IMG/VR virus record: IMGVR_UViG_3300037551_000020
Coordinates: 1-31,262 of that record
Length of the DNA stretch: 31,262 nucleotides
Strand: one strand, 5' to 3'
Source: a virus
The translations under genes were made by a program, and so were the position numbers. This document shows positions 14,164 to 31,122 of this stretch, in pieces (positions within the stretch are counted from its first letter, which is position 1; each line of letters opens with the position of its first letter). The notes below the pieces were generated by a model. The model made no database searches, was not told where the DNA came from, and saw only the letters and a list, made by a program, of their open reading frames with translations.

Positions 14164-15270
14164 TCATGTTGTTGGCAATGGTAGCAGACTTGTGAACTCT
14201 TTGTCACGTGCTGTCGGACCAAAAGATTTGATCCATACTCTGGGGCCTATGACAAGATGCTCGATAGTTCCTAGTACGTTGTATATCGAGGCGTTGTCTA
14301 TGTCCTTGTAGTGTGGTGTGTAGCGCTCAAGTACTTTTGCCCGCATGGATGTGTCTACTAGCCTTAGCTGGCGTGATAGCATTTGCAGATCTTTTGAGTA
14401 GTTACCTGCTTGGTACTCATCTGAATATGTCCACACACCTCCTCGATCTATTTGATCTAGATGGGTGATGGCCAACCCATCTATGGGAAGATCTTCGGAG
14501 CATGCATCTAGCGCGTACCTGCAGAGGCTCATGTCGAAGAACCCCGTACGGAGTGCACCCTGCCATCTGTTCGTAGGATTGTATTTGTCAGGAAATGCAG
14601 CGGTCCTGCCACCACTGAAAGTAGGAAATGGCCCACGTCCATGTCTTGTTGGGTAGGCGTCGAGCCACAGAGCAAGGCGATGTCTTTGACCTTCCGTGGT
14701 CAACCCACTGCACGGTTCATTCGTGGACCCCGTGCAGAGGCCTTGGTCCCAAGTCGTATCACCCCCGGCAATGAGTTTGGGAAGATACTTCATGAAGTGG
14801 TCTGCATCAGGTGCTTCAGCTAGCTTCCTGAGTACAGTAGCTTCGTTCTTGATGAGGTCAGAGTCTCCTGCATCGCTCGCTATCTTGAGTACTACCTTCT
14901 TGCCGTCAAGTCGGCCTGTGTACAAGTCAGCAATGTCTCCCCTTGTCAGGGGCTCCAGCTCTTCGATGGTCCTGTTTGTTTTGCGGTCCTTGAAGGTGAC
15001 AGTAGCTAGGCTCTTGCCGAATGTACCGTCAGCTATTTTCCTTTCCGCATCCTCATGAAGTATGTTGAGGGCGGCTAGTACAAGATTGGCTTCTTCTACT
15101 CCAGGATTATGATCTGGGTGTACCAACTTGGCCATACCCTGATACCTCTTCTTCAGCATCCTTTCTTGCGTGGCTTTGGTTGTGCCAATGCCGATGAAGA
15201 AGTCTTCGGCTCTCCTGGCCTCTTTGATTTTGTTGATGAACGGTTGCTTCGCTTCGGTCCATTTTGCCAT
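14164..15270 (-). CDS. Chimera: J domain, kinase N-lobe-like segment and C-terminal half of PurA/PurZ
   Basis: A 368-residue protein in three parts. Residues about 18-80 form a J domain with HPD at 51-53. Residues about 108-168 look like a protein-kinase N-lobe: G-D-I-A-D-L-Y-T-G-R, VVLKIA with K129, and NEATVL with E143. No kinase catalytic loop follows. From about 177 the sequence follows adenylosuccinate synthetase: T-G-S-T-N (179-183), AYPTRHGRGPFPTF (205-218), then RTGFFDMSLCRYA (241-253), IDGLAITHLD (263-272), and near the end FGPTARDK (350-357), comparable to the family's closing G-P-x-R segment. The synthetase N-terminus, with the GDEGKG nucleotide loop, is absent from the window, so synthetase activity is unlikely. 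An in-frame deletion that fused two genes is the simplest reading. Confidence 0.75.
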   Translation of the reverse strand: MAKWTEAKQPFINKIKEARRAEDFFIGIGTTKATQERMLKKRYQGMAKLVHPDHNPGVEEANLVLAALNILHEDAERKIADGTFGKSLATVTFKDRKTNRTIEELEPLTRGDIADLYTGRLDGKKVVLKIASDAGDSDLIKNEATVLRKLAEAPDADHFMKYLPKLIAGGDTTWDQGLCTGSTNEPCSGLTTEGQRHRLALWLDAYPTRHGRGPFPTFSGGRTAAFPDKYNPTNRWQGALRTGFFDMSLCRYALDACSEDLPIDGLAITHLDQIDRGGVWTYSDEYQAGNYSKDLQMLSRQLRLVDTSMRAKVLERYTPHYKDIDNASIYNVLGTIEHLVIGPRVWIKSFGPTARDKEFTSLLPLPTT

Positions 15271-24376: not shown

Positions 24377-24871
24377 TCATTCCTCAGACAAATCGCCTAC
24401 GGGCTCATCTGAGGGTCTGTAAAGGTCCACTATGATGTCTCTCCTTGCCGCGAATCTATCTCTGATGAGCTTCTCTACGTCTTCCCACTTGAGCCCGCCT
24501 AGCCCACACCCAAGTGGTGGTATTGCTACACTCTCAATTCGGTGATTGGTGAGACACTCTACTAAGGAATCAAGACCTGCCTCAATGTAGATTAGCTTGC
24601 TCTTGTCCCGCCAATCATCCTTGGTGGGGAAGTTTATGATCCATTTGGGATTACCTAGTCTACCTGTGGGGAAGATGTGAAGCTTCCCTGGTCGTAATAG
24701 ACCAGCCTTACAAATATTCGTGTAAGTGTAGAAGTTAGATGGCCATGCTCGGCGGAATAGAAGATCGAGACCTCTTCTAGCTACACCCACACAGTTTACA
24801 GGATTGACCAAAGCCTGAACATTGGCTTTGAGTATGTTGCCTATGCGCTCAATTATCACACTAGCCTCCAT
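24377..24871 (-). CDS. Macro domain protein, DarG/TARG1 type
   Basis: A 164-residue protein covering one macro domain. NPVNCVGVARRGLDLLF (23-39) is the nucleotide-binding start, INFPTKDDWR (79-88) holds K84 in the position of the catalytic lysine of DarG/TARG1 enzymes, and PPLGCGLGGLKW (118-129) is the second phosphate-binding loop. Such domains remove ADP-ribose from DNA or protein. DarG reverses DNA ADP-ribosylation by the toxin DarT, an anti-phage system. Usual relatives read V-G-V-M-G-K-G; here A-R-R-G replaces it. A phage copy without a DarT gene nearby suggests a counter-defence role or NAD-derivative processing. The family is confident; the role is inferred. Confidence 0.85.
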   Translation of the reverse strand: MEASVIIERIGNILKANVQALVNPVNCVGVARRGLDLLFRRAWPSNFYTYTNICKAGLLRPGKLHIFPTGRLGNPKWIINFPTKDDWRDKSKLIYIEAGLDSLVECLTNHRIESVAIPPLGCGLGGLKWEDVEKLIRDRFAARRDIIVDLYRPSDEPVGDLSEE

Positions 24872-25526
24872 TTCCCATCAGTAATCCGCGGGGAAGAACG
24901 GGATTCCACATTGGTAGTTCTCCTGCACCTTCACACTTCGTGCATGTATGGCACTCGATGTACCTGCCCGCTATAAACATGAGCCCATGGCATGTCTGGC
25001 ATCTATTCGTCCAAGTTTTCTCTACATGCCAACCTGCGCCCTTGCATGGGTAGCACACTCCTATCTTCTTACCATTCTTTGAGAACTCCCCCGTACCACC
25101 ACACTTGCGGCATCTGTACTCGTATCTACCACCTATGCGGGCGTGATGAAAGAGACCAGAGAACCCAAAGTTGGTTCGGCAATCAGGGCAAGGCTTATCT
25201 AGCTGATGAATGGTGCTGTACCCAACACCATGGCACACAGTACAAGTAGTACCGTTGGTTGTAGGTCCAAGCCCGGTGCCCAATGATGAGATATCATCTC
25301 CTTCTACTGTGTGGGTGACTGTTACTATCTCTTGCTCAAGGATGGTGTTATCATCCTTGAGTAGTAGATAAGCCTCGTTCACCCTAGCAAAACGTTCCTT
25401 GGCTTGGGGATGCTTGCTCAAGTCTGGATGTTCAAGCTTAGAGAGGCGGCGGTAAGAAGTCTTCAGGGCGTTAGCTGTTGTGGGTGTTGTCAGTTGTAGG
25501 AGTTTCAATGCTTCCGCTACTATCAT
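24861..25526 (-). CDS. DnaJ-like co-chaperone with six CxxC motifs
   Basis: A 221-residue protein with AAGGA upstream of ATG 25526. An N-terminal J domain has HPD at 33-35 and F-A-R-V-N-E-A-Y. A cysteine-rich region follows with pairs at C95/C98 (CTVCHGVG), C113/C116, C139/C142 (CRKCGGTG), C158/C161 (CYPCKGAG), C176/C179 and C195/C198 (CTKCEGAG). Bacterial DnaJ has four such repeats; six is more than usual. The C-terminal substrate domains of DnaJ are missing. It may recruit the host Hsp70 (DnaK) for phage assembly or replication. It overlaps the macro-domain gene by 11 bases. Confidence 0.85.
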   Translation of the reverse strand: MIVAEALKLLQLTTPTTANALKTSYRRLSKLEHPDLSKHPQAKERFARVNEAYLLLKDDNTILEQEIVTVTHTVEGDDISSLGTGLGPTTNGTTCTVCHGVGYSTIHQLDKPCPDCRTNFGFSGLFHHARIGGRYEYRCRKCGGTGEFSKNGKKIGVCYPCKGAGWHVEKTWTNRCQTCHGLMFIAGRYIECHTCTKCEGAGELPMWNPVLPRGLLMGNGG

Positions 25527-30005: not shown

Positions 30006-30332
30006 CTACCTCAGCTTTGCTATGATCCTACTATACTCTTCTTCAGTGAAGTGAATGTTCTTGATCATGTATTTGCAATCCGTGCAATCCGTGCAACCCT
30101 TGCAATCCATGCAACGAGTGCAATCCGTGCAACGAGTGCAATCCGTGCAACGAATGCAATCCGTGCAATCCGTGCAATCCGTGCAATCCGTGCAACCCGT
30201 GCAACCCGTGCAACCCGTGCAATCCGTGCAACCCGTGCAATCCGTGCAATCCGTGCAACGAGTGTTTTCAAGATTCAAAAGGATCTTGAGTTCTTCTGGA
30301 CTTGCGTTAAGTATCTGTTCTTTTGTCACCAT
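30006..30332 (-). CDS. Cys-x-x triplet-repeat protein
   Basis: A 108-residue protein with AGGAG eight bases before ATG 30332. A helical N-terminus of about 24 residues ([12 protein letters not shown]) leads into 21 cysteines spaced exactly every third residue (C-T-D, C-T-G, C-T-R and similar). A polar C-terminus follows, including E-E-E-Y-S-R-I. Strict Cys-x-x spacing over about 60 residues suggests a regular triangular coil holding metal clusters or disulphides, or a metal-storage or redox-buffer peptide. No known fold is assigned. The encoding DNA is a 9-bp tandem repeat that can change copy number. Confidence 0.75.
30074..30262. repeat. 21 tandem 9-bp units inside the Cys-x-x gene
   Basis: TGCAATCCG alternates with near variants (TGCAACCCG, TGCAACGAG, TGCAACGAA) for 21 units in frame. 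Units differ mainly in the third amino acid (Asp, Gly, Arg). Substitutions show that the array has diverged by point changes as well as duplication. Confidence 0.9.
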
Positions 30333-30343
30333 GGGGCATTCTC

Positions 30344-30439
30344 CTAACGTATGGTCTTTAGCTTCTTTATTAGACTCTCCTTCGATACAGGCACGGATAC
30401 AAGGATTTGATTGATAACATCAAGTGGGCCTCTGGGCAT
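30344..30439 (-). CDS. 31-residue leader peptide or small protein
   Basis: ATG 30439 has GGAGG seven bases upstream, the best ribosome site in this part, and the first in-frame stop is at 30344-30346. It lies between the promoter box and the Cys-x-x gene. The peptide starts MPRGPLDVI and ends with Lys/Arg. It may be a small protein in its own right or a leader that couples translation. Confidence 0.5.
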   Translation of the reverse strand: MPRGPLDVINQILVSVPVSKESLIKKLKTIR

Positions 30440-30783: not shown

Positions 30784-30855
30784 CAGGAACAGGAACAGGA
30801 ACAGGAACAGGAACAGGAACAGGAACAGGAACAGGAACAGGAACAGGAACAGGAA
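30784..30855 (+). repeat. (CAGGAA)12 perfect hexanucleotide repeat
   Basis: Twelve identical CAGGAA copies end 36 bases before ATG 30892. No mismatch is present, so the array is young or actively maintained. Each unit contains AGGA, an imperfect ribosome-site core. The in-frame readings on the - strand are a Ser/Cys repeat without ribosome site, so the array is taken as non-coding. Confidence 0.92.
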
Positions 30856-30891
30856 CCAAGACAGGGTAACGAGTAATCAAGGAGCCTTAAA

Positions 30892-31122
30892 ATGTATAGA
30901 GAATTAACACAACGCATGGTGAAACCAGTAGAAGATGTGTGCCCACGTTGTACTGGAGAGCTTGATGTTGCCCTTCCCGGCTTCTTGGATATAGAGCGTG
31001 TATCCATTTGCCGTGCTTGTGCTGCCGTGGTCACCTATGCGGATATAGATGTGGCCGGCATGAATGAAGAGCAGGCTCTATATTCAGTTCCCCTATCCCA
31101 CCGGCTACCAGCTATAGCCTGA
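30892..31122 (+). CDS. Small zinc-ribbon protein
   Basis: A 76-residue protein with AAGGAG (30879-30884) upstream of ATG 30892. CPRC (17-20) and CRAC (about 40-43) form a C-x2-C...C-x2-C zinc ribbon. The C-terminal half is acidic with G-M-N-E-E-Q-A-L-Y-S-V. It is transcribed away from the leftward block and has the perfect hexanucleotide repeat in its leader. Function is unknown; a regulator is possible. Confidence 0.7.
   Translation: MYRELTQRMVKPVEDVCPRCTGELDVALPGFLDIERVSICRACAAVVTYADIDVAGMNEEQALYSVPLSHRLPAIA

What the first reader, a model, noticed from the sequence alone, without database searches (positions are those of the whole stretch)
30006..30332. Protein with a cysteine at every third residue, from a 9-bp tandem array
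Twenty-one consecutive Cys-x-x units with Thr-Asp, Thr-Gly or Thr-Arg fill most of the protein, between conventional N- and C-terminal ends and behind a good ribosome site. Strict period three is unlike zinc ribbons and suggests a repeat coil with metal or disulphide ladders. The array can expand or contract, giving length variants.
Basis: partly seen in the sequence, partly recalled or inferred. Interest (0 to 1): 0.72.

Follow-up and report, generated by a model that had tools for sequence, protein, structure and literature searches.

The report
Phage protein with cysteine-cored coil repeats
A small phage gene encodes a real protein in which every third residue is cysteine; it belongs to a widespread, unnamed virus family whose middle part is probably a narrow coiled rod lined with cysteines that grows and shrinks quickly between related viruses, while its job is still unknown.

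Summary
A 108-aa ORF on the MINUS strand (30332 to 30006) has an AGGAG site 8 nt upstream and 21 uninterrupted Cys-x-x units (17 are CTD, CTG or CTR) between non-repetitive ends. It matches PHROG_15341 (unknown function) and no Pfam or NCBIfam family. Viral contigs hold well over 100 relatives with 8-85 units, plus Campylobacter, Vibrio and Flavobacterium phages. Searches using only a C-terminal cap, blind to the array, found Cys arrays in all 23 proteins whose upstream part was readable. In 22 of these, 568 of 568 core positions are Cys, while units differ freely at other codons. Other members tolerate only about 2% replacements, nearly all Ser or Leu, suggesting a buried core. C-caps of relatives are shared with pentapeptide- and hexapeptide-repeat solenoid proteins. 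Strict period-3 inward spacing is that of the 12-residue coil of beetle antifreeze protein, and units correlate best four apart. AlphaFold2 gives a regular bridge every third residue, at low confidence. Best reading: a narrow beta-solenoid with four inward Cys per turn. Metal binding, disulphides and biological role are untested. Expansion/contraction is supported: two relatives with DNA-identical C-caps carry different 32-unit orders; a third has 22.

The parts
30341..30345 (-). Shine-Dalgarno-like AGGAG, 8 nt before the ATG
   Evidence: sequence
30006..30332 (-). complete 108-aa ORF with N-cap, 21 Cys-x-x units and C-cap, stop included
   Evidence: ORF listing; PHROG_15341 E=6.4e-13
30258..30332 (-). 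N-terminal cap, residues 1-25 ([25 protein letters not shown]), predicted two short helices
   Evidence: AF2 block means 83, 77 and 39 for residues 1-10, 11-20 and 21-30; resembles MLTKEQILTATKAEI.. of L306/L316 and MKKEEILKLG.. of L304/L305
30069..30257 (-). array of 21 Cys-x-x units, residues 26-88
   Evidence: TRF 30074-30258; unit table; AF2 one bridge every third residue, block means 49-60
30009..30068 (-). C-terminal cap, residues 89-108 ([20 protein letters not shown]), predicted short strands plus helix; Cys86-Lys87-Tyr88 leads into it
   Evidence: AF2 block means 75-76 for residues 91-108; conserved as RYMIKNIQFTEAEY in L305 and RYAILGIEFTKDEY in L306

Best explanation
The gene makes a cap-solenoid-cap protein. 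The Cys-x-x array most likely winds into a very narrow beta-solenoid of about 12 residues (four units) per turn with every Cys pointing into the core, the geometry of beetle antifreeze protein TmAFP but with all four inward positions Cys. The x-x residues face outward and can vary freely, so units can be duplicated or deleted without breaking the fold, and length and surface change quickly. Shown here: a translated, conserved family; strong constraint on Cys; rapid array remodelling; C-caps of relatives shared with pentapeptide and hexapeptide solenoid proteins. Inferred: the solenoid, its 12-residue turn and the inward Cys. Speculative: that the thiol-lined core binds soft metal ions (my first choice, because Cys is kept more strictly than a mere small core residue would need) and that the protein is a non-structural accessory protein acting by surface binding, like other phage solenoids.
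For: 1) Cap-only queries: all 6 proteins with the GSRN cap and all 17 readable proteins of 18 loci with the HCRAGW cap carry arrays. In 22 of these, 568/568 core positions are Cys; adjacent units never differ at Cys bases 1-2 (0/546), differ 6.4% at the Cys wobble base and 49-60% at bases 7-8. 2) In a wider set, 51 of 2770 in-register core positions are not Cys: S 20, L 17, F 4, G 3, T 3, Y 2, R 1, V 1, with no D/E/K/N/Q/H, and a Ser-then-Leu couplet recurs in unrelated phages: a buried-core spectrum. 3) The C-cap of L066 matches PHROG_7964/20532, as does hexapeptide-repeat protein L295; the C-cap of L067 matches PHROG_14105, as does the pentapeptide protein of phage CRP-811. Structure search of the L155 model hits phage proteins named beta solenoid, hexapeptide and pentapeptide repeat. 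4) The TmAFP coil TCTxSxNCxxAx has inward residues 2, 5, 8, 11 (PMC8038014). 5) Unit identity over 157 arrays is highest at lag 4 = 12 residues (z 3.4-4.0). 6) AF2 of the window shows a bridge every third residue; weak resemblance to quadrilateral helices including MfpA (Z 3.7).
Against: AF2 confidence in the array is low (block means 49-60 for the window; under 50 for residues 44-104 of the longer relative). All PDB alignments have Z under 4 for the window model, and TmAFP was not among them. The sequence match to TmAFP is compositional (domain i-Evalue 0.29). The lag-4 signal weakens in the most diverse arrays (z 1.5-2.4), there is no lag-8 echo, and block duplication could produce it. Ser-Leu couplets in L020 recur 4-5 units apart, not strictly 4 (my count). 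No metal or redox data. No conserved gene neighbour suggests a function.
Confidence: 0.58

Rival explanations
1. Metallothionein-like protein: the array is a flexible thiolate polymer that wraps Zn, Cu or Fe-S clusters, with no solenoid. It would buffer metals or supply them to phage enzymes.
For: 8-85 Cys-x-x units per protein, Cys kept almost absolutely; CxxCxxC is a known Fe-S and zinc ligand spacing (general knowledge).
Against: Metallothioneins tolerate spacing changes (general knowledge), but 2740 of 2800 Cys spacings here are exactly 3; replacements are Ser and Leu, not random; C-caps of relatives are those of solenoid proteins.
Confidence: 0.2
2. Precursor of a thiazole-containing peptide (RiPP), like heterocycloanthracin, in which Cys residues are cyclised.
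For: Heterocycloanthracin is the closest published precedent of Cys-Xaa-Xaa arrays, strain-variable (PMC2674419); TIGR03601 aligns weakly to the array.
Against: 11.3 bits against a cut-off of 35; no YcaO or nitroreductase family in 20 phage records (some are fragments); the array is internal, followed by a conserved C-cap, whereas the precursor has it at the C-terminus.
Confidence: 0.05
3. Array is mostly a passive spacer or selfish 9-bp repeat; Cys is incidental and caps do the work.
For: Array length and order change fast between close relatives.
Against: 568/568 Cys core positions and no changes at Cys bases 1-2 in arrays not selected for Cys; unit-sharing alone would not spare just these two bases.
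Confidence: 0.08
4. Ice-binding (antifreeze) protein, as annotated in Vibrio phage 1.238.A.
For: Annotated 'insect antifreeze protein' by InterPro; period-3 inward pattern as in TmAFP.
Against: The ice-binding T-C-T motif is absent: Thr precedes Cys in only 0.2% of units; no Pfam match to the family.
Confidence: 0.02

Closest known systems
PHROG_15341 (e.g. CP21_165/166 of Campylobacter phage CP21, NVP1238A_68 of Vibrio phage 1.238.A)
   Same: Cys at every third residue between short caps; the window matches at E=6.4e-13
   Different: Window caps belong to another cap subtype (KEQIL... / ...IHFTEEEY); the PHROG has no function
Beetle antifreeze protein TmAFP (1EZG, TCTxSxNCxxAx)
   Same: Every third residue would point inward; Cys and Ser in core; tandem variable copy number
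   Different: Only 2 of 4 inward positions are Cys, oxidised, secreted, TCT ice face; no demonstrable homology
Phage pentapeptide (PF01469-type) and hexapeptide (YdcK-type) solenoid proteins
   Same: Homologous C-terminal caps behind the repeats in relatives of the window protein
   Different: Repeat unit 5 or 6 residues without obligatory Cys
Heterocycloanthracin TIGR03601
   Same: Strain-variable Cys-Xaa-Xaa arrays
   Different: RiPP precursor with maturation enzymes, array at C-terminus, no C-cap; the window scores far below its cut-off

Membership tests
PHROG_15341 | profile match over the Cys-x-x region | tested here: met
   E=6.4e-13, 49.7 bits, residues 26-89
TmAFP-type insect antifreeze | TCT ice-binding motif in each 12-residue coil | tested here: not met
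   Thr precedes Cys in 0.2% of 2588 units; no Pfam hit
TmAFP-type insect antifreeze | inward residue at every third position of a right-handed coil | tested here: inconclusive
   sequence period and lag 4 fit; AF2 low confidence
Pentapeptide repeat | A(D/N)LXX or NTGNX five-residue unit | tested here: not met
   unit is three residues; no Pfam match. Some relatives share the C-cap of such proteins
Hexapeptide left-handed beta-helix | six-residue aliphatic repeat | tested here: not met
   no Pfam match; only the C-cap is shared in relatives
Heterocycloanthracin TIGR03601 | profile score over cut-off | tested here: not met
   11.3 bits, cut-off 35, E=0.42
Heterocycloanthracin TIGR03601 | cyclodehydratase/dehydrogenase in the genome | tested here: inconclusive
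   no YcaO or nitroreductase in 20 phage records; some records are fragments, a host enzyme could serve, and the ThiF-type cyclodehydratase was not searched
Metallothionein | metal-thiolate clusters in the purified protein | not testable with these tools
   needs expression and metal analysis

The most novel reading that the evidence does not exclude
A virus-borne beta-solenoid whose core is a continuous ladder of four cysteines per turn, coordinating a linear column of soft metal ions, so that phages carry a length-tunable metal-thiolate rod or sink; the fold would be a new all-cysteine solenoid class.
Probability: 0.22. Interest if true: 0.85.

Novelty: new variant of a known kind. Interest (0 to 1): 0.62.

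Why it matters
If correct, phages use a third, all-cysteine solenoid that can be swapped with pentapeptide and hexapeptide solenoids behind common caps. The family is widespread, missed or mis-called by annotation (wrong-frame ORF in phage FL-1, 'insect antifreeze' in a Vibrio phage), and makes two things testable: whether a protein core can consist of nothing but stacked thiols, and what phages do with fast-changing solenoid accessory proteins. It also offers a simple designable repeat unit with possible metal chemistry.

Tried and rejected
In 299 Bacillota genomes there were 7 hits to PHROG_15341, again low-diversity arrays, so no convincing bacterial member was seen in that sample. The profile A1 could not be used for a collection scan. 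PDB Z-scores are all low, and TmAFP is absent from the rows listed. Gene neighbours show no conserved partner, only replication/recombination and assorted phage genes. Raw invariance of Cys bases in arrays found by Cys patterns is circular, so the argument rests on the cap-selected set. Searches for an earlier description of the phage family found none in the open-access library; closed journals and preprints are not covered.

Full report
WHAT IS THERE. The window is a 31,262-base virus record with a tail-sheath-like protein. The finding is a complete minus-strand ORF, 30332 to 30006, 108 aa. It reads [25 protein letters not shown], then 21 Cys-x-x units, then [25 protein letters not shown] lies 8 nt before the ATG. 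The DNA array is period 9, 20.6 copies. All 21 Cys codons are TGC, and all variation lies in bases 5-9 of the unit. Because a 9-bp array leaves long open frames on both strands, the frame had to be judged from relatives.

RELATIVES. The protein matches PHROG_15341 (E=6.4e-13, unknown function) and nothing in Pfam; in NCBIfam only a sub-threshold TIGR03601 match appears. Named members: Campylobacter phage CP21 genes 165 and 166, Vibrio phage 1.238.A gene 68, annotated 'insect antifreeze protein', and Flavobacterium phage FL-1, where the annotators called an overlapping wrong-frame ORF. Genomes often carry several copies; one 41-kb phage record gives ten matches. In bacteria, 7 of 299 Bacillota genomes gave hits, all low-diversity arrays, and none of 14 control genomes.

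THE WINDOW'S OWN SUBTYPE. Relatives with the same kind of caps are L305 (MKKEEILKLG... / ...RYMIKNIQFTEAEY), L306 and L316 (MLTKEQILTATKAEI... / ...RYAILGIEFTKDEY), L304 and L055/L162. Their arrays range from a handful of units to 44 and have diverged, yet both caps stay in the Cys frame. This is the direct argument that the window array is translated.

CONSTRAINT ON CYS. Arrays found with Cys patterns cannot be used to show that Cys is conserved. I therefore searched with C-terminal caps alone. The GSRN-type cap found 6 loci, all with arrays. The HCRAGW-type cap found 18 loci; all 17 with readable upstream sequence carry arrays of 10-46 units. In 22 of these proteins 568 of 568 in-register core positions are Cys. 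Adjacent units never differ at Cys bases 1-2 (0 of 546 pairs), differ 6.4% at the Cys wobble base and 49-60% at bases 7-8. In the wider set 51 of 2770 core positions are not Cys: Ser 20 and Leu 17 lead, with no Asp, Glu, Lys, Asn, Gln or His. Leu is two base changes from Cys, and Ser-then-Leu couplets recur in unrelated phages. This looks like a buried core with near-absolute preference for thiols.

CAPS AND MODULARITY. The C-cap of L066 matches PHROG_7964 and 20532, which also match L295, a hexapeptide (YdcK-type) solenoid protein in a Bacillota genome. The C-cap of L067 matches PHROG_14105, as does the pentapeptide-repeat protein of Roseobacter phage CRP-811. The AF2 model of L155 retrieves viral proteins named beta-solenoid, hexapeptide and pentapeptide repeat. 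L398 joins the HCRAGW C-cap to a different N-cap. So the Cys array occupies the slot that other solenoids occupy. This was shown for relatives, not for the window's own short caps.

FOLD. TmAFP, whose coil is TCTxSxNCxxAx, points residues 2, 5, 8 and 11 inward, i.e. every third residue, in a 12-residue right-handed coil (PMC8038014). An all-Cys version of that coil fits the strict spacing of three (2740 of 2800 spacings). Over 157 non-redundant arrays, unit identity is highest at lag 4, which is 12 residues (z 3.4-4.0 for unit, x1 and x2); in diverse arrays it is only 1.5-2.4. AlphaFold2 of the window shows a bridge at every third residue but with block means of 49-60, and the longer relative's array is below 50 over residues 44-104. 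PDB matches are weak (best Z 3.8; includes pentapeptide protein MfpA at 3.7). I regard the solenoid as likely, not shown.

REMODELLING. L159 and L160 have C-caps identical in DNA (225/225) and N-caps at 105/114, yet different orders of 32 units; L158 is 220/225 identical to L160 in the C-cap but has 22 units.

KNOWN PRECEDENTS. Heterocycloanthracin is a published strain-variable Cys-Xaa-Xaa protein thought to be a thiazole-peptide precursor (PMC2674419). The window scores 11.3 bits against its cut-off of 35, has a C-cap behind the array, and 20 phage records lack YcaO and nitroreductase families. The antifreeze function is unlikely, because the TCT face is missing.

FUNCTION. Neighbours of family members are replication, recombination and assorted phage genes with no constant partner. 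I infer a non-structural accessory protein. Metal binding is my preferred use of the thiols only because Cys is kept more strictly than a small core residue needs to be; it is untested.

Noticed in passing
window 30784-30856 (+): Perfect (CAGGAA)12 hexamer array in the leader of a small + strand ORF (30892-31122) with CPRC/CRAC pairs; a possible length-variable leader.
   Followed up: no
window 24380-25526 (-): A Macro-domain protein (Pfam E=1.3e-20) directly beside a J-domain/DnaJ-zinc-centre protein.
   Followed up: partly
window 14167-15270 (-): ORF with a J-domain-like start and an adenylosuccinate-synthetase-like C-terminal half (PHROG_1211, 2-aminooxy adenylosuccinate synthetase, E=2e-6); fusion or frameshift not settled.
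   Followed up: no
L040 (record G008): One 41-kb phage record gives ten PHROG_15341 matches scattered over it, an unusual paralogue load.
   Followed up: no
L154 2045-2786 (Flavobacterium phage FL-1): Annotated ORF APZ82901.1 is a wrong-frame reading of the Cys array; the true frame has N-cap and array, and its C-cap appears frameshifted.
   Followed up: partly
structure-library hit A0A5B8IEK9: A giant-virus protein (Mimiviridae sp. ChoanoV1, named TNFR-Cys) matches the window model at E=5e-5; a Cys-x-x array in a eukaryotic virus or its prey would be notable.
   Followed up: no
record W01 (Campylobacter phage CP21) 140101-141838: A third PHROG_15341 match (one stop inside) lies about 1 kb from a radical-SAM gene; the phage has eleven radical-SAM matches.
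   Followed up: no
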